From: Alsobacter soli
GTDB taxonomy: Bacteria; Pseudomonadota; Alphaproteobacteria; Rhizobiales; Beijerinckiaceae
Length of the DNA stretch: 64,000 bases
Reading direction: 5' to 3'
NCBI RefSeq assembly: GCF_003004785.1
Contig: NZ_PVZS01000005.1
Span: 124,001-188,000 of the forward strand
Below are positions 6,827 to 23,468 of the stretch, piece after piece (the stretch's first letter is position 1; each line of letters starts with the position of its first letter). The notes under the pieces were generated by a model. That model was not told the origin of the DNA. It saw nothing but the letters and a program-made list of their open reading frames with translations, and did no database searches. The position numbers and the translations under genes were made by a program.

Positions 6827-7429
6827 GTGTTCGTCCGAGCCTACCTGAGAGCCTCGACAGCCGATCAGGACGCGCAACGTGCTCGCGCTGATCTGGAGCG
6901 CTTCGCCGATGAGCATGGCCTGAAGGTCGCGAGCGTCTACGTCGAGAATGAAAGCGGCGCGTCGCTGCAGCGCCCTGAGTTGTTCCGCTTGCTCCGGGAC
7001 TGCCGGAAGGGCGACATCCTTTTGGTCGAACAGGTCGACCGGCTTTCACGTCTCAACGCTGATGACTGGGAGCGCCTCAAAACCCTAATCATCGAGAAGG
7101 GCGTCCGCGTGGTGGCGTTGGACCTGCCCACTTCGTGGATTATGGCCGGCGCGGCCGACGAGATCCAGGCGCGTATGTTCGCCGCCATCAACGCCATGAT
7201 GCTGGACATGTTGGCAGCGATTGCGCGGAAGGACTACGAGGACCGGCGACGCCGCCAAGCGCAGGGGATTGCCAAAGCGAAGACCGAGGGACGTTACAAG
7301 GGTCGCCCGGAAAACAAGAGCCGAAACGACGCGATCTTACGGATGCTTCGGGGCGGCCAGCCATGGTCGGCGATCATCGCGGCAACTGGCGCGTCAAGGT
7401 CGACCTTGGCTCGTCTAGCGAAACGCTGA
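6827..7429 (+). CDS. serine recombinase (resolvase family)
   Basis: A 200-residue small serine recombinase. Catalytic Ser10 (YLRASTADQD), the DRLSR motif at 71-75 and the E-helix region (MFAAINAMMLDMLAAIARKDY) are intact, as is the C-terminal HTH (NDAILRMLRGGQPWSAII ... STLARLAKR). The family resolves cointegrates of Tn3-type transposons or plasmid multimers. GTG start at 6827, with GGGAG 8 bases upstream and homology starting at the first residue. It probably binds the repeated motifs directly upstream and autoregulates. No transposase is next to it, so it may be a relic of a larger mobile element or serve an unrecognised one. Confidence 0.88.
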   Translation: MFVRAYLRASTADQDAQRARADLERFADEHGLKVASVYVENESGASLQRPELFRLLRDCRKGDILLVEQVDRLSRLNADDWERLKTLIIEKGVRVVALDLPTSWIMAGAADEIQARMFAAINAMMLDMLAAIARKDYEDRRRRQAQGIAKAKTEGRYKGRPENKSRNDAILRMLRGGQPWSAIIAATGASRSTLARLAKR

Positions 7430-10841: not shown

Positions 10842-12068
10842 CTATCGCCAGCCGGGCGCCTGCCGCATGTCTTCGAGCGTGGCTTTTGAGTCCGGCGGGG
10901 CGCCGTTCCGAAATTTGAACATGGTCCCGGCGGGGAAGAGCCTGTCCGCGTCCGGGAAGAAGCGGCGGAAGATCTCTCGCACCCGCGCCCGCACCAGCTC
11001 CTCGTCGGCTCCGTAGTAGCCCTTGAGGATCACGAGGACGTAGTCGAAGAAGTGATGGCCGAGGAACTGGTCGTAGACGAGGCTGTAATGGCCTTGGACC
11101 TCCTCGTCCGTGTCGGCCGCCATGCCACGTCCGAGAAACGGCATGGCGAGACCCGCCCGCCGCCGCGCCCCGGGGTCGATCCACACGTCCAGATCGCGAT
11201 GGACCACTCTCCGGGGGACCATGTCCCGGTCGACCTCGATCAGCGTGTTTTGCGCATGCGACTCCAGGAGGATGCCGCGTTCGCGGGCGACCGTCGCCCA
11301 GCACGCGACGATTGGGCCGAGCACGCGGTCGATGACGAATGGAACCGGGTCGACGCCCAGCCTGGCGATCATCTGCACCAGGAGAGGCGGCGACTCGGGG
11401 TGCTTCAGGTCGCCGGCGTACAAGGCGAAGCACGGGATCAAAAACCTTCCGGCAACAAAGGGCCGGGCCCGCGCCTCTCGCACCAGAAATCCCCAGGCCC
11501 GTCCGCCGGCGCCGAGGGCGACGCCCAGCGAGTCCGGCAGATAGGCGAAGCTGTCGAACAGGACGTGCGCGAGATCGGAGCACACGGCGACACTGTTGTG
11601 GATATTCTTGAGCCGAAGCTCCCGGTTGAAGCGCGAGATCCGGACCGGGTAGTGGAGCTTGATGTAGTGATCGGGAACACCTTGCAGTTGCTCCAAGGCG
11701 AGCACCGTCCTGGTCGAGGCGGTCGGGGCCACCTGAATGGGCGTGCTCGGCGGTAAGGCGCGGATGTCCTCAATACCTTCGGCGGCGTCGTTCCTCCACG
11801 TTGCAGGATGCACAGGAAACAGCACCCCTTCCGGCCTGACGAAGTGGCGAAGAAGCCCAGGAACCGGATCGGCCTGGAACAGCGAGACGCGATCCCGTGG
11901 GGCGCAGACTGTGACGAGACCGAAGGACGGCGCCTCGTTTTCCGGTTGGTAGCGCACCGCGGCCTCGGTCCGACTTGCGAGCGGGCTGTAGGTCTTGGCA
12001 CCCTCGATGACGTAGCGCTCCATATAGAGGAAGGCGCGGGCGCCCTGGCCCACGGCTGCGAGTTCCAT
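10842..12068 (-). CDS. IucA/IucC-family siderophore-synthetase-like protein
   Basis: A 408-residue protein. The IucA/IucC signature segments are visible: the phosphate/substrate strand HYIKLHYPVRISRFNREL (about 140-157), a central helical region, and RGILLESHAQNTLIEVD followed by RRVVHRDLDVW, equivalent to the ATP/Mg site of NIS synthetases. It is shorter than the usual 550-600 residues and lacks much of the N-terminal palm. NIS synthetases couple carboxylates to amines or alcohols in siderophores such as aerobactin. No acyltransferase, monooxygenase or receptor is nearby, so a role outside classical siderophore synthesis is possible. Start at ATG 12068 has GGGAG upstream. Confidence 0.68.
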   Translation of the reverse strand: MELAAVGQGARAFLYMERYVIEGAKTYSPLASRTEAAVRYQPENEAPSFGLVTVCAPRDRVSLFQADPVPGLLRHFVRPEGVLFPVHPATWRNDAAEGIEDIRALPPSTPIQVAPTASTRTVLALEQLQGVPDHYIKLHYPVRISRFNRELRLKNIHNSVAVCSDLAHVLFDSFAYLPDSLGVALGAGGRAWGFLVREARARPFVAGRFLIPCFALYAGDLKHPESPPLLVQMIARLGVDPVPFVIDRVLGPIVACWATVARERGILLESHAQNTLIEVDRDMVPRRVVHRDLDVWIDPGARRRAGLAMPFLGRGMAADTDEEVQGHYSLVYDQFLGHHFFDYVLVILKGYYGADEELVRARVREIFRRFFPDADRLFPAGTMFKFRNGAPPDSKATLEDMRQAPGWR

Positions 12069-12871: not shown

Positions 12872-13867
12872 TCAGGGCGCCGGCCGAAAAACGAGCAGCT
12901 CCGCCTGTCCTCCCGATGCAGGGCTCGCGACGTAGAGCCGGTCCGTCTCGGGGACGAAAAGCGAGGTTCTCGCCCCCTTCGAGGTCGCGATCCTCGCGGG
13001 AGCCACGTTCGGGTCGTCCGGCTGCACGTCGACGAAGCCCTCCCCGCAGCTGACATAGAACCTGCGGCGGCGCGCGTCGTAGAAGACGTCGTCGGCGTCC
13101 CCGCACGTGGCTTTCCGCCACAAAAGCGAGCCGTCGAGCCCGTAGCGCAGCAGGGTGGCCGGCTTCCGGGCCACAATCGCCAGACCTGCGGGATCACCGC
13201 CGTAGGCCATCGGGAAGGTCGCCCGGAACTCGCCCGTCCGCCAGCTCGCGGCCCGCCGCCCGGACTGGATGTCCACGACGGCGACTTCGCCCCGGTCGGG
13301 AACGTTGACGAACGCCCGCTGGCCGGAGGCGTCCAGCTGGAACCCCTCCGGGTGGCCGCCCAACTCGATGACGGCCTTCTTCGCCCTGTCCCTCGGGTCG
13401 ATGACGGCGAGGGCGCCCTCGCCATACCCGACCACGACGCGGTCGCCGCGGATGCGGACGTTGTCCGCATCCTGCTTGAGGTCGATCCGACCGGAAGGCG
13501 CCAGGGTCTTGCCGTCGAACAGGCGCACAGAGCCGTCCCGGGCGTTGGCCACGTAAAGCGTATCCGTCGAGGGCTCGTAGCCCACCCCCTGGGGCTCCGC
13601 CAGGCCGGCGATTCCGGCGGCGACCTTGGCCTGCTCGATGTCGACGACGCCGACGCTGTCGTTGCCGAGCTCGGCCACGAACAGGCGTTTCCCAGCCAGG
13701 TCAACCGCGAGGTGGTCGATGCGCCCCCCGACGGGACCGAGCGGAATCCGTGCCTCCAGAACGAGGCCTTCAGCCGCCTGCGCTCCAACGGCGTACAGCA
13801 TGAGGCCGAGCGCGCAGACGCACGCGCACGTCGTCTGTGAAGGCGTCCTCGTTGCTGCCCATCCCAT
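12872..13867 (-). CDS. secreted YncE-like beta-propeller protein
   Basis: A 331-residue protein with a signal peptide (about residues 1-33, ending AVGAQAA) and five to seven repeats of the YVTN-type blade (for example GIAGLAEPQGVGYEPSTDTL, VYGEGALAVIDPRD, GGHPEGFQLDASG). Periplasmic propellers of this class bind ligands or proteins and often accompany redox or metal enzymes; no catalytic residues can be named. The ATG at 13867 has a strong AAGGAGG site; an upstream ATG at 13921 would add an unlikely extension. It is transcribed into the sod gene. Confidence 0.78.
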   Translation of the reverse strand: MGWAATRTPSQTTCACVCALGLMLYAVGAQAAEGLVLEARIPLGPVGGRIDHLAVDLAGKRLFVAELGNDSVGVVDIEQAKVAAGIAGLAEPQGVGYEPSTDTLYVANARDGSVRLFDGKTLAPSGRIDLKQDADNVRIRGDRVVVGYGEGALAVIDPRDRAKKAVIELGGHPEGFQLDASGQRAFVNVPDRGEVAVVDIQSGRRAASWRTGEFRATFPMAYGGDPAGLAIVARKPATLLRYGLDGSLLWRKATCGDADDVFYDARRRRFYVSCGEGFVDVQPDDPNVAPARIATSKGARTSLFVPETDRLYVASPASGGQAELLVFRPAP

Positions 13868-13917: not shown

Positions 13918-14319
13918 TCATAATTGCGGCGACAGGAAGAGGCACCGGGTGCCTGTGATCTCGTAGCCGTAGCCCCCCGGGTCTGCTCGGACATGCGGGC
14001 ACACCCAGGCTCTGCCGTCAGGGCTGAGGCTGCCTATTACGCTGTCTCCCGTCACCTGGTAGCGCTGTTCGCCGATCTGCACCTCAAGACCGCCGCCCTC
14101 AGACCGGGTGACGGCGCTGGTGGCTATCGGACGACAGTCATTGTTGCCGCAGCACAGCGCCCCGCTCCCGTTCCGGATCCCCTCAAGCCAGTCGTTGGAC
14201 GGATCCCCGTCCGTCTTGGTGTCATGCGCTCCCGCAGCGGAAGCCTGAAGGAGTACGGCCAGCGCTGCCGCGAATGCCCGCAAGCGTGTTGGCCCGCACC
14301 TGACGCTCAGCCTCTGCAT
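13918..14319 (-). CDS. secreted cysteine-containing hypothetical protein
   Basis: A 133-residue protein with a signal peptide (FAAALAVLLQASAAGAHD) and a mature domain containing the cysteine cluster ALCCGNNDC plus later cysteines (WVCPHV, TRCLFL), likely disulphides or a metal site in the periplasm. Homologues occur as unnamed secreted proteins in Bradyrhizobium-like genomes. Start ATG 14319 has GGAGGAACG upstream. It precedes the beta-propeller and SOD genes on the same strand with a 50-bp gap. Confidence 0.68.
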   Translation of the reverse strand: MQRLSVRCGPTRLRAFAAALAVLLQASAAGAHDTKTDGDPSNDWLEGIRNGSGALCCGNNDCRPIATSAVTRSEGGGLEVQIGEQRYQVTGDSVIGSLSPDGRAWVCPHVRADPGGYGYEITGTRCLFLSPQL

Positions 14320-14419: not shown

Positions 14420-14710
14420 CTAGTCGTCGTCCTCGTCGTCCTCGGCGACGGCCTTCCCGGTCTGGGCATTGACGGTCATGTTCTCCGTCTTCCCGTTCTT
14501 CTGCCCCGAGATGAGGAGGTTCGCGCCCTGTCTTTGCACCTGGACGTTGGAGTAGCCCTCCGACTGCATCTTCTGAACGATCTGCTCTTGAGTCATCGGC
14601 TGGCCGCCGGCGGTGAAATCCGGCCTCTGGTCCGCCGCGAACGCGACCAGAGCGGCGGCTCCGAGCGCCAGAGCTCCTGCGGAGGCGATCAATATGGGTT
14701 TTGCGGGCAT
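14420..14710 (-). CDS. small secreted PepSY-like protein
   Basis: A 96-residue protein with an N-terminal signal or anchor (ILIASAGALALGAAALVAFA). A PepSY-type core follows (MTQEQIVQKMQSEGYSNVQVQ ... VNAQTGKAVAEDDEDDD), where the strand ending in DxxTG is the usual PepSY signature. The C-terminus is an acidic tail of Asp/Glu that could bind cations. PepSY domains act in periplasmic inhibition or metal handling. Start ATG 14710 begins the family; a longer frame reaches 14863. Confidence 0.7.
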   Translation of the reverse strand: MPAKPILIASAGALALGAAALVAFAADQRPDFTAGGQPMTQEQIVQKMQSEGYSNVQVQRQGANLLISGQKNGKTENMTVNAQTGKAVAEDDEDDD

Positions 14711-14981: not shown

Positions 14982-15962
14982 TTACTCCTGCTGCTGTCCG
15001 CACTTGGCGACTTCGTCCGCGCTGTGCTGCTTCTGCGCCGCCACGACCTCCTTGCACTGCGGGTCCATGCCGGCCTTGGGCGCGCCGCCCGCCAGGCTGA
15101 CCTTGTCGAGCGCGGCGCGAAGCCCGGTCGCGACCTTGCCAGCCTCGTCATTGGCCCAGAAGTGCATGAAGAACAGCCGCGGCTCGTCGGCCAGCATGTG
15201 GTTATGGATGGCGGTCACCTCGATGCCGTTGGCCCGCAACGCCTTCAGCACCGGGTTCACCTCGTCAGCTGTCAGAACAAAGTCCCCTGTCGTAGCGACC
15301 TTGCCGCCCCCGGTCGGCTGCATGTTGATGCCGATGGCGGATCCCATGGATTCCGGTACGTCCATGCCCTCGTCCTTGACCGGCTGCCCCCGCGCCGCCG
15401 AGAACTGCAGCACGCCGCCGTTGACCTTGCCCTTCTGGCCGAGGGTCTTCTCGATGGCCGCCTGGTCGAGGTCGAGCGCTGTCGCAGGCGCGGCCGCCGT
15501 GGTGAGCGCCATGGGTGTTGCGCTGAGCGCCAGCGCTTCGTGCAGCGCGGCCGCGAGCTTCACCGGGTCGCCGCGGCCGGCGACGTGCATGTAGAGCGTA
15601 AAGGGCTCCGCCCGCAGCAGGTGGTTGTGGACGGCAGTGATCGTGATCCCGCTCTCGGAAAGTTTGGCCATCACAGGGTTGATCTCCTGCTGCGTGAGCA
15701 CGAGGTCGCCCATCACCATGGCCTCTGAGCCCATGGGCCGGAACGCGAGCCAGCCGCCCAGCGCGAGCGCCGGCTTGATCTCGACGCCGTCCACCCGGAC
15801 CCTGAGGTCGGTGCGCGGCAAGCCGACCCGGTAGACGTCGCCCTGCATGGAGCCCTCACGCCCGAGGGCCTTTCCAACGGCGCCCCAGTCGGGCGCGGCC
15901 AGGACGGCGGAACCGGTCAGAATCGCGGCGGACGCTACAAAGACTGCGATGGCTCGGCGCAT
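14982..15962 (-). CDS. DUF1259 (LpqO-like) tandem-domain protein
   Basis: A 326-residue secreted protein (signal peptide to about residue 22, SAVLAA). It has two copies of the DUF1259 domain, each with a VVLT-type turn followed by a conserved H-N-H motif: ITAVHNHLL in copy 1 and VTAIHNHML in copy 2. Copy 1 spans about 25-155, copy 2 about 165-295. The HNH-like pair followed by phenylalanine-rich FxxMH strands suggests a metal-binding surface; the function of the family is not known. The C-terminus ends in Lys/Gln-rich sequence with two cysteines. It lies 35 bp after the small membrane protein gene and may be the last gene of the chromate operon. Confidence 0.8.
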   Translation of the reverse strand: MRRAIAVFVASAAILTGSAVLAAPDWGAVGKALGREGSMQGDVYRVGLPRTDLRVRVDGVEIKPALALGGWLAFRPMGSEAMVMGDLVLTQQEINPVMAKLSESGITITAVHNHLLRAEPFTLYMHVAGRGDPVKLAAALHEALALSATPMALTTAAAPATALDLDQAAIEKTLGQKGKVNGGVLQFSAARGQPVKDEGMDVPESMGSAIGINMQPTGGGKVATTGDFVLTADEVNPVLKALRANGIEVTAIHNHMLADEPRLFFMHFWANDEAGKVATGLRAALDKVSLAGGAPKAGMDPQCKEVVAAQKQHSADEVAKCGQQQE

Positions 15963-15997
15963 GGCGCTTCTCCTGTTCGCCCCCTGGGTTCGCCCCT

Positions 15998-16231
15998 CTA
16001 GGCATGGCGGCCAGGCTGCTCCTCCGGCGGCCGCACGTGGCGGAAGGTCCAGAGCAGCAGCAGGTCGTAGGCGATCTTGAGGGCCGTGAGGTACACGGGC
16101 AGCAGCGCCGCCACGAACCCGTCGCCGAAGTCGCGCAACGCCCGCCCCCAATAGAGCCGCGCGACCAAATATGCATCCGCGGCCACCAGCCGGAGGTCCA
16201 GTCCACGCCCTATCGTGGTGACGTGCTGCAC
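15998..16231 (-). CDS. small hypothetical membrane-associated protein
   Basis: A 77-residue protein with one hydrophobic amphipathic stretch (FGDGFVAALLPVYLTALKIAYDLLLLW). It lies 8 bp after its upstream neighbour and 35 bp before the DUF1259 gene on the same strand, which supports a real operon member. No family recognised. Confidence 0.48.
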   Translation of the reverse strand: MQHVTTIGRGLDLRLVAADAYLVARLYWGRALRDFGDGFVAALLPVYLTALKIAYDLLLLWTFRHVRPPEEQPGRHA

Positions 16232-16239
16232 GGCCCGCC

Positions 16240-16608
16240 TCAGCTTCTGCTCGAAGGGCGCTGCAAGATCCCTTCTTCGGGGATGGAGGGGCCGTCCTCC
16301 CGCAGCTGAACCCGTTCCCCCGCTCGCCAGACCTCGTAGCAGCGCTCGGCCTCATCCGACCGGGTCAGGCAGAGCCGATCCTTGTCTTGCCGCCACCGTC
16401 CGGCGCCGCGTCGGCCCATCGCCACCGCCCCCAAACGGCCGCCGCGCTGGAAAAAGTAGGCCCAGTGCACCGCGTCGGTGAACTCCATGCCGGGGACCGT
16501 CCGGCGGATCTCGGGGGCCCCGAGCTTCCGGAAGCCGTCCTCCGCCTGGGCGGGCCCGGAGCAGACGAGGAGGCCGGAGACGGCCAAGAGCAGCCAGTGC
16601 GTTCTCAT
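16240..16608 (-). CDS. secreted hypothetical protein
   Basis: A 122-residue protein with a signal peptide (LLLAVSGLLVCSGPAQA). The mature part contains two tryptophan/arginine strands (VHWAYFFQRGGRLGAVAMG and RWRQDKDRLCL ... CYEVWRAGERVQL) that resemble small all-beta periplasmic domains found as unnamed proteins in Rhizobiales. Its ATG overlaps the stop of the upstream gene (ATGA, 16605-16608), indicating translational coupling in the chromate operon. Role unknown. Confidence 0.66.
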   Translation of the reverse strand: MRTHWLLLAVSGLLVCSGPAQAEDGFRKLGAPEIRRTVPGMEFTDAVHWAYFFQRGGRLGAVAMGRRGAGRWRQDKDRLCLTRSDEAERCYEVWRAGERVQLREDGPSIPEEGILQRPSSRS

Positions 16609-17240
16609 GGCGCCATCCTCGCCGAGATGCGGTCAAAGCGCGCGATGGTGTCCGCCTCAGTCCACAGCGCCAGATGGCCGGCCACCCCGAACGCGGTGTC
16701 GCGGACGGTGAAGAGTTCGGCTCCCTCGAACGAGACGGTGAAGGCGTCGCCCGCGGCCCGCAGTCCAAGCTCGTGCCAGGTCGCGGTCGCGACGGGCTGC
16801 ACCACACCTTGGATCTCCTCAAGCCGCCCTGCCACGACCCGGTTCAGCGTGATCCTGTTCGCGATGCAGTCGGCAACGGCGACGTAGTAGTTGTTCTCGT
16901 CGATGACGCGCACGGCCAGGCCGGCAGCCTGGTGGACGTGACCGGCCACCGACTTGAAGCGTACGGTCGCGCCCACGTCTTTGGCGCTGAAAAGCGAGTA
17001 GATGGCGAGAGGAAACCTGTTGCTCGTTTGGTCCGGCGTCCGTTGCTCAAAGGCGACCCCGCCCGCGGCTCCGCCGTCGCGAACCGTGGTCCACAGGCCG
17101 ACAAGGCCGTCCCCCGTGAGCCCGATCTGGAACCCGGCCGGGACCTCGCCCATCCCCAACCGCTCGAAGGTCACCGTCTGGGCAGAGGCCGGTGCGGTTA
17201 TAAGGAGAGCGGCGAGCGCCGCGAGTGCGCGCCGGGTCAC
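16605..17240 (-). CDS. secreted concanavalin/laminin-like beta-sandwich protein
   Basis: A 211-residue protein with a signal peptide (ALAALAALLITAPASAQ). The mature domain has the pattern of a family-16/LamG-like jelly roll (GLAVRVIDENNYYVAVADC, then a strand TWHELGLRAAGDAFTVSFEG and ARFDRI at the end). Such domains bind carbohydrates or act as cell-surface modules. The start is a GTG at 17240 that overlaps the stop of chrA in a GTGA unit, so it is co-translated with chrA. Its linkage to chromate transport is unexplained. Confidence 0.68.
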   Translation of the reverse strand: MTRRALAALAALLITAPASAQTVTFERLGMGEVPAGFQIGLTGDGLVGLWTTVRDGGAAGGVAFEQRTPDQTSNRFPLAIYSLFSAKDVGATVRFKSVAGHVHQAAGLAVRVIDENNYYVAVADCIANRITLNRVVAGRLEEIQGVVQPVATATWHELGLRAAGDAFTVSFEGAELFTVRDTAFGVAGHLALWTEADTIARFDRISARMAP

Positions 17241-18640
17241 GCGATCGCTCCCGCAAAGTAGAGCCCCACTCCGGCCGCCGAGCAGGCCGCCAGCGTCCGG
17301 ATCATGCCGACCTTGTAGCGGAACATCGCGATGACCGCCGCGGTCGCCAACGCCAGCGCCCATGGGTCCACGCTCGTGAAGACGGGCCTGTCGAAGTCGA
17401 GCCCCCAGGCGTGCACCGGCTCCACCTGCCGGAACAGGGCGTGGATGGCGAACCAGATCGCCAGGTTCAGGATGACACCCACGACGGCCGCGGTGATGGC
17501 CGAGAGCGCGCCTGCGAGGGCCTTGTTGCCGCGTAGGATCTCGATGTAGGGCGCCCCTAGGAAGATCCAGAGGAAGCAGGGCGCGAAGGTGACCCAAGTC
17601 GCGAGCAGCCCGCCAAGGGTTCCCGCCAGCATGGGCGGCAGCGCGCCGGGGTCGCGAAAGGCCGCCATGAAGCCCACGAACTGGAGCACCATGATCAGCG
17701 GGCCGGGCGTCGTCTCAGCCATGCCGAGCCCGTCCAGCATCTCGCCGGGCTTCAGCCACCCGTAGGCGTCGACGGCTTGCTGGGCCACGTAGGCCAGCAC
17801 GGCGTAGGCTCCGCCGAAGGTGACCATGGCCATCTTGGAGAAGAACAGGGCGATCTGGCTGAAGGTGGCGGAGGGCCCGAGCGCCAGCAGCAGCGCGCCG
17901 ACCGGGACCAGCCAGAGCGCCGCCGCAACGGCGGCGGCCCGCATCGCGTTGGCCCGGCTCGGCGCCTCAGGGCCCGAGCCGTCGTCGGCCAGCAGGTAGG
18001 CGACGGGCGGCCCGGCCTTGCCCTTCGAGGGGCCGTGTCCGCCGCCGACGGCGAACTGCGGAAGGCCAGCGCGACCGCCCGCGAAGCCGATGAGACCCGC
18101 CGCCAACACGATCGCCGGGAACGGCGCGCCGAAGAAGAAGATGGCCACGAAGGCGGCGGCCGCGAGCGTGATCATGAGCCGGTTCTTCAGCGCCTTGGAG
18201 CCGACCCGCAGCACGGCTTCCAGCACCACCGCGAGCACGGCCGCCTTGAGGCCGAAGAACAGGGCGGTGACGAAGCCCACGGCGCCGAAAGCGGCGTAGA
18301 TCCAGCTCAGCGCCATGATGGCGACGATGCCCGGCACGACGAACAGGCCGCCGGCGACCACCCCGCCCCGCCGCCCGTGCAGCAGCCAGCCGACATAGGT
18401 GGCGAGCTGCTGGGCCTCGGGGCCGGGCAGGAGCATGCAGTAGTTCAGCGCGTGCAGGAACCGGTTCTCCGAAATCCAGCGCTTCTCGTCGACCAGGATG
18501 CGGTGCATGACGGCGATCTGGCCGGCGGGACCACCGAACGACAGGGCGGCGACCCTGGCCCAGACGACAACGGCCTCGCGGAAGGAGGGGTGGGCCGGAG
18601 GCGCTGTCGCGGCGCCGGCGCGGTCGACCACGGCGTCCAT
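17237..18640 (-). CDS. chrA: chromate transporter ChrA
   Basis: A 467-residue inner-membrane protein of the CHR family, two homologous halves of about six spans each. The FGGP motif is in the first half (ALSFGGPAGQIAVMH, about 34-48) and the diverged FGGAY in the second (MVTFGGAYAVLAYVAQQ). The conserved PGPEAQQLATYVGWLL and TTPGPLIMVLQFVGF segments are also present. ChrA exports chromate using the proton motive force. Start at ATG 18640, 2 bp after the upstream stop; downstream stop overlaps the next gene. The operon position after a ChrB-domain protein supports the assignment. Confidence 0.93.
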   Translation of the reverse strand: MDAVVDRAGAATAPPAHPSFREAVVVWARVAALSFGGPAGQIAVMHRILVDEKRWISENRFLHALNYCMLLPGPEAQQLATYVGWLLHGRRGGVVAGGLFVVPGIVAIMALSWIYAAFGAVGFVTALFFGLKAAVLAVVLEAVLRVGSKALKNRLMITLAAAAFVAIFFFGAPFPAIVLAAGLIGFAGGRAGLPQFAVGGGHGPSKGKAGPPVAYLLADDGSGPEAPSRANAMRAAAVAAALWLVPVGALLLALGPSATFSQIALFFSKMAMVTFGGAYAVLAYVAQQAVDAYGWLKPGEMLDGLGMAETTPGPLIMVLQFVGFMAAFRDPGALPPMLAGTLGGLLATWVTFAPCFLWIFLGAPYIEILRGNKALAGALSAITAAVVGVILNLAIWFAIHALFRQVEPVHAWGLDFDRPVFTSVDPWALALATAAVIAMFRYKVGMIRTLAACSAAGVGLYFAGAIA

Positions 18641-18642
18641 GG

Positions 18643-19464
18643 TCACGCCCCCGGCCGGTTCGTGGGCCAGTTGTGCGTCTCGTCCGTGGCGTCTCGGCAC
18701 CAGCGGTAGAAGGCGTCATAGAGCACCATTCCGGCGTCGAGCTGCTCAAGGTCGTCGACGAAGTTGCGGGACAGCCCGAGTGACGCCGCAAGGAGGCCGG
18801 CGGCCGGCGGTTCGAGATCGAGCCGGTCGGTGTCGGCGGCGCGCACGATGCGGGCGAGGTGCGACAGCCCCGGGCTCGAAAGCCCGAGTTCCTCAACCAT
18901 GACGTCAAACGAGCAGAGCTCGCCCCGGTGGCTCCAGAATACGTCCTCGACGTCGAAGGGCGTGGCGTCGAAGCGGCTCGCGACGCCAGCCACCTCGGAG
19001 GCCTTCACGTAGAGGAAGACCGCAGCTGGGTCGACAAAGCGCTGGATCAGCCAGGGACAGGCGATCCGGTCGATCTTGGGTCGCTCGCGCGTGACCCAGA
19101 CGGTGCGCCCGAGGCCGTCCCGCGGCGGTAGCTTGTCGGCGATTACGCGGGGCTGGTCGGCCCGTCCCCAGCCCTCGGTGCCGCCGTCCAGGCTTTCGGC
19201 TGTGGCCGCGCCGGCGTGCCGCAACCAAGCTGCGACACCGTGGCTGAGCTTGAGACCCTGCTGGCAGACGACCACGACCGAATGGCCCGCGTAGGCGTCC
19301 GCCCATGCCGCCACGTCCTTGTGCGAGCGGCGCACCGAGCCGGGCACCAGGAAGGGCTCGGCGTCGAAGTCCTCGTCCGTCCGCACGTCCACGATTGTGG
19401 GGCAGGCGGCGGTGCCGATAAGGCGGGCGAGCTTGTCGATGGATATGGAGTTTACAGAAGGCAT
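18643..19464 (-). CDS. rhodanese-ChrB fusion chromate-resistance protein
   Basis: A 273-residue protein. Residues 10-100 are a rhodanese domain (ACPTIVDVRTDEDF, loop VVVVCQQGLKLSHG with the catalytic-type Cys and a full-length loop). Residues 118-265 are the ChrB C-terminal domain (WVTRERPKIDRIACPWLIQRF, DVEDVFWSHRGELCSFD, FVDDLEQLDAGMVLYDAFYRW). ChrB-type proteins regulate or assist chromate resistance; the rhodanese fusion suggests a thiol or sulphur-transfer step, such as sensing chromate through a cysteine. It heads the operon leading into chrA. The long frame reaches 19683, but homology starts at ATG 19464. Confidence 0.88.
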   Translation of the reverse strand: MPSVNSISIDKLARLIGTAACPTIVDVRTDEDFDAEPFLVPGSVRRSHKDVAAWADAYAGHSVVVVCQQGLKLSHGVAAWLRHAGAATAESLDGGTEGWGRADQPRVIADKLPPRDGLGRTVWVTRERPKIDRIACPWLIQRFVDPAAVFLYVKASEVAGVASRFDATPFDVEDVFWSHRGELCSFDVMVEELGLSSPGLSHLARIVRAADTDRLDLEPPAAGLLAASLGLSRNFVDDLEQLDAGMVLYDAFYRWCRDATDETHNWPTNRPGA

Positions 19465-19851
19465 GACGCGTCCCCGGCTTGAAAAAGCGAACCTGGACGC
19501 GATGCTTCGGCCGTAGCCTCTTGAGGGGACCGCAACCCCCAGGCCGGGGATCAGAGCGCGGGGCCGAGGTGCTGTCAAGCGACATCGCCTTGACGAGCCC
19601 GTCTGTACGACGGCGAAGGCGGCGATCTCTGGAGTACCGCTTACCACCCCAAGCGGACCTGACGGGCGGTTCTCGATGAACACCAGAACGGGATTACGAC
19701 GCTGAGCGCCACGGCAGAGGCTAAGCTCGCCACCAGCTTGTCATAGCGGACCGCCACGCGGCGGTGTGCTCGTCCGACGACCATAGCAGGAAACGGGATG
19801 TCGGCTCTGGGAGCGGCGTCTAACTTCCCGCCGCTCGCCCAGGAGAGCCCC
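19465..19851. other. gap with IS scrap and no intact gene
   Basis: Between the chromate operon and the EamA gene. It contains the transposase fragment annotated separately; 19465-19670 shows only GC-rich shadow frames. Promoters for the two divergent genes are presumably here but were not resolved. Confidence 0.45.
19671..19781 (-). pseudogene. IS5-family transposase C-terminal fragment
   Basis: In one minus-strand frame the sequence reads GRAHRRVAVRYDKL followed by VASLASAVALSVVIPFW. This matches the conserved end of IS5-type DDE transposases (RRVATRYDKLA, then a short hydrophobic helix). Only this terminus remains, with no catalytic core and no terminal inverted repeat found, so it is a degraded insertion at the border between the chromate operon and the integrated-element side. 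Confidence 0.6.
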
Positions 19852-22079: not shown

Positions 22080-23468
22080 TTATTCCCCCGCCTGCGAGCC
22101 GTCCGAAGGCCGCCAACTCTCGCGAAGGCCGCCAACATCGCCATGGCGGTCTTCGGCGTTCTTGACGGAGTTCGGCAGCGAGATGAGCCAGGGGCCCTTC
22201 ATCGCTGCCTTCTCCGACCTGATGCCCAGGGCCGCTCGGGCGCGCTCCAGGTTGCGTCCCGAGATCCCCAATTGGCGGGCTTCCTCCTCGACCTCTGAGG
22301 TCGGGCGCGCACCATCAGCAAGGGCTTCCCGCAGGAAGTCGCATGCTTGGTCCACCTTCGACAGTCGGTCCGTGGGTTGGCTCTTCCCGACTGTGTCGGC
22401 CGTGTGAAGGACGGGCGTGTCGAGGAACTCCACGCAGGATGTCCGGATGCCTTCTCCGACCGTCTTGCCCACGATCTCGAACGCGAGCCCTGGCGTGCGT
22501 GCCAGGTTCGTCTTCTGAGGCAGCAGCAAGCGGCGATCCTCGTCATCAGGATCTTGCGCGACCAGGAGGGCGGATCGGGCAGCTGCGATCAGCTCGCCGG
22601 ATCCTTTCACGGCAGAGATGGCGTTCCGCCCGCCGCGCTTGTTGAGGTGCGTGACGAGAACCACCGCGACCCGATGCTTGGCCGCCAGTTGTTGCAGCCG
22701 CCCCATGAGGGCGCGCACGGACGTGCCCTCATTCATGCCCTTGGGGCCGCCATAGGCGCTTATGGGATCGATGACGACGAGGCGCACGTCTCCAAGCTGT
22801 TCGAGCGCCTGGCCGAGCCTCTCGATGTCCTGGTGCAGATCCACCTGACGATGAGCGCTGCCGGTCGCCGCCGTGCCGGTGATTACGTGCACGCGCCTGA
22901 TGTCCGCCCCAGCAGCAGCGATGCGGGGCTTGATGGTGTCCGTCACGCCGTCCTCGCAGTTCAGCAGGATGGCGCTCCCGACGGGCAGGTCCGACCCGCC
23001 AGGGAGTTCCACGCCAGCAGTCGCAGCGGCCGCAAGCATGGCTGTGAGCTGGCTCTTGCCGAGGCCCGGATCGCCCGAAATGACAGTCACGTGGCCAATC
23101 GGGATGCGTCCTTCCCAGAACCACTCAATGGCCTCTTCCTTCACTTCGGAGAGTGACACAAGGATCAGGTCGCCGGGCGTGTACGCCGGCCCAGCGAGGA
23201 CAACGTGATCTCTCTCTTCGGCGACGGGCAGTACCGCGTCGAGATTTTGCTGGACGGGTAACTCGATGTCGGCGAGCGCCGGCTCCACATGTTGGGCAGG
23301 TGATCTGAGGGCAGCCAGAAGAGCGTCAGCTCGGTGCTTCTCAGGCCTAAGGAGCGGCCCGCATGCTCGGACCAATTCCCCAGGCTGCTTGTCGATAGCC
23401 CGCGCAATGTGGGGCAGTTTTATTCCAGCCCGGCGGGTCGCCCGCCGTAACTCTCGATACGTGGTCAC
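22080..23468 (-). CDS. RepA/DnaB-like AAA ATPase (replicative helicase)
   Basis: A 462-residue P-loop ATPase. The N-terminal 60 residues resemble an HTH-like helical segment. Walker A is GDPGLGKS (132-139) and Walker B is RLVVIDPIS, with the RecA-type sensor loop VVLVTHLNKRGG. The C-terminal domain (SKVDQACDFLREALADGAR onwards) is the winged helix seen in prophage primase-helicases of the RepA family. Such proteins unwind the element's origin for replication. It is the largest gene of the element, flanked by an unknown gene 9 bp upstream and the HGG protein 3 bp downstream. The N-terminus has no primase motif, so priming must come from elsewhere. Confidence 0.83.
   Translation of the reverse strand: MTTYRELRRATRRAGIKLPHIARAIDKQPGELVRACGPLLRPEKHRADALLAALRSPAQHVEPALADIELPVQQNLDAVLPVAEERDHVVLAGPAYTPGDLILVSLSEVKEEAIEWFWEGRIPIGHVTVISGDPGLGKSQLTAMLAAAATAGVELPGGSDLPVGSAILLNCEDGVTDTIKPRIAAAGADIRRVHVITGTAATGSAHRQVDLHQDIERLGQALEQLGDVRLVVIDPISAYGGPKGMNEGTSVRALMGRLQQLAAKHRVAVVLVTHLNKRGGRNAISAVKGSGELIAAARSALLVAQDPDDEDRRLLLPQKTNLARTPGLAFEIVGKTVGEGIRTSCVEFLDTPVLHTADTVGKSQPTDRLSKVDQACDFLREALADGARPTSEVEEEARQLGISGRNLERARAALGIRSEKAAMKGPWLISLPNSVKNAEDRHGDVGGLRESWRPSDGSQAGE

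What the first reader, a model, noticed from the sequence alone, without database searches (positions are those of the whole stretch)
14982..19464. Chromate operon carrying three extra small proteins and perhaps a tandem DUF1259 protein
Rhodanese-ChrB, ChrA, a GTGA-coupled beta-sandwich secreted protein, an ATGA-coupled small secreted protein and another small protein are tightly spaced, with DUF1259 35 bp further. The secreted proteins have no known role in chromate resistance, yet coupling suggests co-function in the periplasm.
Basis: partly seen in the sequence, partly recalled or inferred. Interest (0 to 1): 0.55.

Follow-up and report, generated by a model that had tools for sequence, protein, structure and literature searches.

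The report
Chromate operon with known periplasmic helpers

Summary
In detail: chrB (rhodanese fusion), chrA, a ConA-like secreted protein (GTGA overlap), a small secreted protein (ATGA overlap), a short ORF and a tandem DUF1259 protein sit at 14982-19464 as described. The reading that the extras have no known link to chromate mostly fails: they match chr accessory genes (cep by domain and position; chrO and chrY/chrL by sequence; chrZ/chrK and chrC further downstream). The third small protein is a stub: both ends of the MFS transporter ChrP with about 1.02 kb missing. A second copy in the same genome keeps ChrP whole, lacks chrA, cep and chrO, and has a broken DUF1259 gene. The unit may run on to 10.8 kb and begins with the Rfam RNA chrB-a, which ends on the chrB start codon. 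Newest result: in nine Bradyrhizobium loci and one other, chrB is eroded or gone, yet the RNA survives beside an intact DUF1259 gene; in five of them it is 92% identical pairwise while its flanks are at 30-50%. The RNA may thus also control DUF1259, although most chrB-a genomes in a class sample lack DUF1259. Membership is ordinary; that link is worth testing.

The parts
19462..19545 (-). chrB-a cis-regulatory RNA (Rfam RF03078); its 3' stem covers the ribosome-binding region and it ends on the chrB ATG
   Evidence: 68.3 bits, gathering score 43.9; own model R2, of whose 18 training copies this is one, gives 77.3 bits
18643..19464 (-). chrB: rhodanese domain + ChrB_C
   Evidence: PF09828 155.8 bits, PF00581 28.7 bits
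17237..18640 (-). chrA: chromate efflux transporter, two CHR domains
   Evidence: PF02417 238.6 bits, two stretches; TIGR00937 202.6 bits
16605..17240 (-). ConA-like secreted protein; counterpart of 'cep' by domain type and position (no sequence comparison with cep itself); signal peptide by eye
   Evidence: Pfam only below cut-off; homologues in 9 plasmid records, e.g. C. metallidurans Ni-2 between a ChrB_C gene and a ChrO-like gene; that homologue passes PF06439
16240..16608 (-). ChrO-like small secreted protein; two Cys invariant in 12 aligned sequences
   Evidence: tblastn 41% identity to the chrO position of CH34 pMOL28, E 7e-9; alignment A3; predicted small beta-barrel, pLDDT 84
15998..16231 (-). 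Stub of ChrP (MFS transporter): about 26-29 N-terminal and 26 C-terminal residues joined in frame, middle missing
   Evidence: blastn against the intact copy on C78: pieces at L139 8425-8512 and from 9531, about 1.02 kb net missing between
14982..15962 (-). Tandem DUF1259 protein (ChrL/ChrY/LpqO family), signal peptide by eye; His clusters H112/H114/H126 and H253/H255/H267
   Evidence: PF07485 291.4 bits; the six His invariant in 16 sequences from 3 phyla and in 59 closer ones
14420..14710 (-). PepSY_2-like small protein, signal peptide by eye
   Evidence: 22.6 bits, under the cut-off of 24.3
13918..14319 (-). Cys-rich 133-aa protein, signal peptide by eye, no family
   Evidence: no family over cut-off, no plasmid homologue at E 0.01
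12872..13867 (-). YncE-type beta-propeller, counterpart of ChrZ/ChrK
   Evidence: TIGR02276 43.7 bits; matches CH34 and FB24 propellers (53 and 73 bits); C78 copy 69% DNA identity
12238..12846 (-). Fe/Mn superoxide dismutase, counterpart of ChrC
   Evidence: PF02777 81.5 bits; 315 bits to the CH34 SOD
10842..12068 (-). IucA/IucC-FhuF-like (NIS synthetase-like) protein; membership of the same transcript not shown
   Evidence: PF04183 33.0 (cut-off 25), PF06276 29.3 (cut-off 25.2); homologues beside DUF1259/chr genes

Best explanation
It is an extended chromate-resistance (chr) operon of the kind known from Cupriavidus and Arthrobacter. The chrB-a leader RNA gates translation of chrB (inferred: its 3' helix and an alternative pseudoknot compete next to the ribosome-binding site); the overlapping start and stop codons would carry that control through chrA, cep and chrO. 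ChrA pumps chromate out of the cytoplasm (established for the family). The secreted proteins (ConA-like, ChrO, DUF1259/ChrL, and probably PepSY-like, Cys-rich and YncE propeller) then deal with chromium in the periplasm; DUF1259 most likely binds a metal, perhaps Cr(III) or Fe, through two invariant three-histidine clusters (inferred). SOD (ChrC) removes superoxide formed when chromate is reduced (established idea for ChrC, recalled). The short ORF 15998-16231 is a dead or nearly dead remnant of ChrP; the genome keeps an intact ChrP in a second, complementarily broken copy of the operon on another contig. Shown here: membership, order, homology, the stub, the second copy, the RNA. Inferred: regulation and the periplasmic chemistry.
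For: Families and couplings. The same parts beside chr genes in CH34, Ni-2, Aminobacter, Methylobacterium and Arthrobacter plasmids. Literature, passages read: chrO, N, P, Y, Z induced by chromate in CH34, data not given there (PMC2864759); ChrO, ChrN and ChrY proteins found only or mainly after a metal mix that included chromate (PMC11647595); chrL up to about 95-fold induced, and deletion of chrJ, chrK, chrL said to lower resistance (PMC2751784). chrA-like match in the flank of 51 of 80 DUF1259 loci. ChrP stub and reciprocal second copy. RNA at 68.3 bits; 41 matches in 100 sources (18 of them the training copies, 10 more in loci fetched for having the RNA), 29 running straight into a full-length chrB-type ORF; helix 1 covaries and the pseudoknot pairs in 99% of cells.
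Against: No expression or phenotype data for this organism. 23 of 80 DUF1259 loci show no chrA/chrB-type gene in the fetched stretch, several on short contigs. The ConA-like > ChrO > DUF1259 order is rare (5 of 80); the ConA-like protein has a match in 1 of 150 order genomes, the own one. The leader folds no better than shuffles (z 0.16). The DUF1259 model has no informative PDB match, so metal binding rests on conservation alone. A 271-bp gap after DUF1259 could end the transcript there; the terminator scan found 9 terminator-like sites against 4.2 expected, the six on this strand all inside genes.
Confidence: 0.62

Rival explanations
1. The leader is not an RNA switch but a DNA operator or mRNA-stability element, and the accessory genes are controlled by a protein regulator.
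For: ChrB is called a transcriptional regulator of a chr operon in Ochrobactrum (search listing only); energy z-score 0.16.
Against: For helix 1, pseudoknot and small hairpin taken together no shuffle of 500 reaches the observed covariation score, most of it from helix 1, and pairing falls from 95% to 35-54% when slid; a pseudoknot in 'chrB RNA' was found independently (PMC7657543, passage); the block is kept where chrB itself is gone.
Confidence: 0.15
2. The short ORF 15998-16231 is a genuine two-helix membrane protein with its own role.
For: The ORF is open and the deletion kept the frame.
Against: Its halves match the two ends of ChrP at 82% and 83% DNA identity to the intact copy, much like the neighbouring chrB (82%) and DUF1259 end (88%); no relative of the short form was found in plasmids (0 of 39 records cover 80% of it).
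Confidence: 0.08
3. The secreted proteins serve carbohydrate or envelope chemistry unrelated to chromium and travel with chr genes only as cargo of the same mobile islands.
For: The Ni-2 homologue matches 3-keto-disaccharide hydrolase; 23 of 80 DUF1259 loci lack chrA/chrB in view.
Against: Overlapping genes inside the operon, the same adjacency in Alpha- and Betaproteobacteria, chromate induction and deletion effects of counterparts.
Confidence: 0.1
4. The accessory part makes and handles a chromium- or iron-binding small molecule: an IucA/IucC-like ligase (or a Cj0069-family protein elsewhere), the ChrP exporter and periplasmic binding proteins.
For: An IucA/IucC-like gene follows the operon; it lies beside DUF1259/chr genes in 4 of 5 other places in 199 family genomes and in Methylocystis plasmids (G614:C2 has the length of one of these plasmids, so these sets overlap), there directly followed by ChrP (L010, L169); Cj0069-family match in 32 of 80 DUF1259 loci; iron-type ABC genes beside some.
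Against: The ligase is only just above the Pfam cut-offs, has no NCBIfam hit and no PDB sequence relative; in this genome ChrP is on another contig; G633 has the ligase with none of the other 15 query proteins within the 20 kb fetched.
Confidence: 0.07

Closest known systems
C. metallidurans CH34 pMOL28 chrIB1A1CEF1-chrO-chrN-chrP-chrY-chrZ
   Same: ChrA, SOD, rhodanese and ChrB_C, ChrO, ChrP, DUF1259 (ChrY), YncE (ChrZ)
   Different: Here rhodanese and ChrB_C are fused; no match to ChrI or ChrN in the window; ConA-like, PepSY-like and Cys-rich genes added; ChrP reduced to a stub; SOD at the far end; chrB-a leader (no R2 match in the CH34 stretch)
Arthrobacter sp. FB24 CRD (chrL, chrK, chrJ)
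   Same: DUF1259 lipoprotein chrL and propeller chrK, reported as needed for full resistance
   Different: Different phylum, other gene order; no SOD, ConA-like or ChrO-like match in the stretch searched
C. neocaledonicus STM 6070 chrB2A2CF-cep-chrL
   Same: ConA-like exported protein directly before chrL, as the paper describes it
   Different: No chrO; separate chrF; reported frame change in chrB2; sequences not compared here
Rfam chrB-a RNA (RF03078)
   Same: Sequence, structure and position on the chrB start codon
   Different: The window copy is ordinary; loci with chrB eroded and DUF1259 kept were not met in the papers searched (the library holds open-licence papers only)

Membership tests
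Extended chr operon (CH34/FB24 type) | ChrA with two Chromate_transp domains | tested here: met
   PF02417 238.6 bits, two stretches
Extended chr operon (CH34/FB24 type) | ChrB_C protein in the operon | tested here: met
   PF09828 155.8 bits
Extended chr operon (CH34/FB24 type) | DUF1259 (ChrL/ChrY) accessory protein | tested here: met
   PF07485 291.4 bits; 45% identical to FB24 ChrL
Extended chr operon (CH34/FB24 type) | Chromate-induced expression | not testable with these tools
   no expression data
chrB-a RNA (RF03078) | Score above gathering threshold, directly upstream of chrB | tested here: met
   68.3 vs 43.9 bits, ends on chrB ATG
chrB-a RNA (RF03078) | Ligand binding / regulation | not testable with these tools
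   -
ChrP (MFS transporter) | Full-length transporter | tested here: not met
   77-aa stub; intact relative on C78, 417 aa
ChrO | Sequence homology to Rmet_6198 | tested here: met
   41% identity over 83% of the query, E 7e-9; gene identified by its place and the naming
3-keto-disaccharide hydrolase / ConA-like families | Window protein matches a Pfam model above its cut-off | tested here: not met
   below cut-off for two lectin-like families; of two homologues scanned, Ni-2 passes PF06439 and L028 passes PF21708
NIS synthetase (IucA/IucC) | IucA_IucC and FhuF domains above cut-off | tested here: met
   33.0 vs 25 and 29.3 vs 25.2 bits
NIS synthetase (IucA/IucC) | Siderophore-type ligase activity | not testable with these tools
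   -

The most novel reading that the evidence does not exclude
The orphan chrB-a RNA controls, besides chrB-chrA efflux, a separable periplasmic chromium-handling module centred on DUF1259: in several lineages chrB beside it has decayed away while the RNA stays under selection with DUF1259 next to it. DUF1259 would be a two-site histidine metal binder, and its substrate would narrow the search for the RNA's ligand.
Probability: 0.3. Interest if true: 0.6.

Novelty: new member of a known kind. Interest (0 to 1): 0.38.

Why it matters
How the chr accessory proteins work is unknown although they were reported to matter in 2009, and I met no ligand for chrB-a in the papers searched. Loci where the RNA outlives chrB but keeps DUF1259 tie the two unknowns together and make both testable: a reporter for the RNA and a metal-binding assay for DUF1259.

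Tried and rejected
Rejected: three extra small proteins as new chromate factors. Two have counterparts near chr genes; the third is a ChrP stub. Rejected: that the ConA-like protein is a proven glycosidase (below cut-offs). Led nowhere: a genome-contig scan with the ConA-like protein alone (no relative confirmed); a search of 150 order genomes with it (only the own genome); PDB fold searches with the ChrO and DUF1259 models, which gave only weak lipocalin-like and ferredoxin-like/shell-protein matches and are not used as evidence of function; PDB sequence searches (none; one chance-level match, E 0.7); homologues of the Cys-rich 133-aa protein in plasmids (none); a sigma-70 scan (no site against 0.6 expected, so it says little about internal promoters). 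In one search locus L016 is listed as ConA-like > ChrO > DUF1259 but mixes two clusters and is not counted. The pseudoknot is not claimed as new: one in 'chrB RNA' is mentioned in PMC7657543 (passage only). Alignment A6 was fitted to a model that includes helix 1 and the ribosome-site helix, so counts for those lean towards them; the pseudoknot and the GGC/GCC hairpin were not in the model. Of the 80 genome-contig loci, 61 were given to the RNA model search; 19, mostly near-identical Sphingomonadales copies, were left out. Loci L153-L161 were not given either.
Full report
The observation. ChrB is a rhodanese-ChrB_C fusion, ChrA a two-domain CHR transporter, and the DUF1259 protein has two copies of PF07485. 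By eye, the ConA-like, small, DUF1259, PepSY-like, Cys-rich and propeller proteins start with Sec-type signal peptides; no signal-peptide program was run.

More genes follow. Downstream on the same strand lie a PepSY_2-like protein (below its cut-off), a Cys-rich protein without family, a YncE-type propeller, a superoxide dismutase and an IucA/IucC-FhuF-like protein. Whether one transcript covers all of it is not shown; there are gaps of 271 bp after DUF1259 and about 170 bp before the IucA/IucC-like gene.

What the extras are. The small secreted protein is 41% identical to ChrO of CH34 pMOL28. The ConA-like protein has relatives in 9 plasmid records, among them C. metallidurans Ni-2, where it precedes a ChrO-like gene, a ChrN-like gene and DUF1259. 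DUF1259 is ChrY of CH34 and ChrL of Arthrobacter FB24; the propeller is ChrZ/ChrK; SOD is ChrC. In print (passages read, not whole papers): chrO, chrN, chrP, chrY and chrZ are induced by chromate in CH34, data not given there (PMC2864759); ChrO, ChrN and ChrY were detected after a metal mix that included chromate (PMC11647595); chrL is induced up to about 95-fold and deletion of chrJ, chrK and chrL is said to lower resistance (PMC2751784); an exported ConA-like protein 'cep' precedes chrL in C. neocaledonicus (PMC7060636; its sequence was not compared here). So 'no known role' does not hold for DUF1259 and is weak for the others, although no mechanism is known for any of them.

Conservation. 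Of the 80, at E up to 1e-3, chrA-like matches are in the fetched flank of 51, chrA or a chrB-type gene in 57, SOD in 39, Cj0069 in 32, ConA-like in 18, propeller in 17, ChrP-type MFS in 12, ChrO-like in 10. In a separate draw, DUF1259 occurs in 3 of 289 class and 9 of 99 family genomes, own genome counted in both; of the 11 non-own loci taken from them, 6 have chrA. Direct order ConA-like > ChrO > DUF1259 is seen in 5 of 80 and 1 of 11, and in none of 16 plasmid loci without a gene between.

The third small protein is a relic. Its matches are to the first helix region of proteins of which many are annotated as MFS transporters, one of them (Aminobacter) inside a chr cluster, and its second half matches their last helix by inspection. 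The same genome has another chr cluster on contig C78 (L139): chrB-a RNA, chrB, a full 417-aa ChrP-type MFS (PF07690), a DUF1259 gene broken by a loss of about 0.62 kb with a frame change, and the propeller; no chrA, cep or chrO match in the 20 kb fetched. Relative to it the window ORF lacks about 1.02 kb inside ChrP. The two copies thus have complementary losses; together they hold chrB, chrA, cep, chrO, chrP, DUF1259 and the propeller at least once each.

The leader. Aligning regions upstream of rhodanese-type chrB genes exposed a conserved block, which is Rfam chrB-a at 68.3 bits (gathering 43.9), ending on the chrB start codon; chrB-a is also in all 7 sources of a further scan, C78 among them, and in 24 of 289 class genomes, 23 over the gathering score. 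A model built from 18 copies found 41 matches in 100 sources, the 18 included and 10 more in loci fetched for having the RNA. Helix 1 covaries; a pseudoknot between its loop and the strand before the ribosome-site helix pairs in 99% of cells, with three of five pairs invariant and changes on both sides at one pair; the ribosome-site helix pairs in all cells. Pseudoknot and ribosome-site helix share two columns, so they cannot both form fully: a plausible switch, inferred. Against it, the window leader is no more stable than shuffles.

RNA without chrB. Of the 41 matches, 29 run into a full-length chrB-type ORF (259-283 aa, judged by length and start) and 12 do not. In 10 of the 12, nine Bradyrhizobium loci and G478, chrB is internally deleted (L056, L096), cut to its first 44-60 residues (L087, L099) or not detectable (L061, L085, L093, L094, L095, L130), and DUF1259 is the next gene among those searched for, apart from a weak PepSY-like match before it in four. 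The other two are M. nodulans, where chrB and chrA look broken but the ChrO-like, DUF1259, SOD and propeller genes remain, and a weak match in L024. In the five Bradyrhizobium loci with no chrB left, the RNA is on average 92% identical pairwise against 50% for the 75 nt upstream, 50% for the 75 nt downstream and 30% for the next 75; the same figures for loci with intact chrB were not computed. The genomes of 8 of these 10 loci could be searched: all 8 have chrA and 2-4 chrB-a copies, so the chrB-less unit exists beside other chr loci. I read this as selection on the RNA for control of DUF1259. Not excluded: recent loss, or use of the block by the divergent Cj0069 gene. Against a general link: of the 3 class genomes with DUF1259 only the own one is among the 24 with chrB-a, so in that sample each mostly occurs without the other.

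How DUF1259 may work. Six histidines, three per repeat, are invariant in 16 sequences from three phyla and in 59 closer ones. The model (pLDDT 86.9) shows two alpha/beta repeats; PDB matches are uninformative. Metal binding is an inference.

The IucA/IucC-like gene. Relatives were found in 5 of 199 family genomes including the own; of the 5 non-own places 4 lie beside DUF1259 or chr genes and one (G633) shows none of the other 15 query proteins in 20 kb. In Methylocystis the order is chrB-chrA-DUF1259-IucA/IucC-ChrP; one of the four places (G614:C2) has the length of a Methylocystis plasmid already in the plasmid list, so the two sets are not independent. A chelator pathway is possible but has no functional support. 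One literature search for this link listed no paper on it by title (listing only).

Verdict. A new member of a known kind, with one mis-called gene, a missed RNA, and a testable new link between that RNA and DUF1259.

Noticed in passing
G000:C78:71001-91000 (L139 7460-10949): Second chr cluster of the same genome with complementary losses: intact ChrP, broken DUF1259, no chrA, cep or chrO.
   Followed up: yes
L056, L061, L085, L087, L093-L096, L099, L130: Graded loss of chrB behind a conserved chrB-a RNA with DUF1259 kept; in L093 the RNA's start codon runs in frame into DUF1259.
   Followed up: partly
32 of 80 DUF1259 loci, e.g. L061 8188-9192: Cj0069-family gene (NF033816, DUF6815) next to or divergent from DUF1259, also where no chrA is in view.
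   Followed up: no
L097 13365-13412: chrB-b RNA (RF03086), a different chr-linked RNA, near a chrA-like and a ConA-like gene.
   Followed up: no
window 6827-7429 and 22080-23468: Serine recombinase and an AAA_25 ATPase on either side, possibly a mobile region.
   Followed up: no
L017, L021: Iron-type ABC transporter genes inside chr clusters of Sphingopyxis and Pedobacter plasmids.
   Followed up: no
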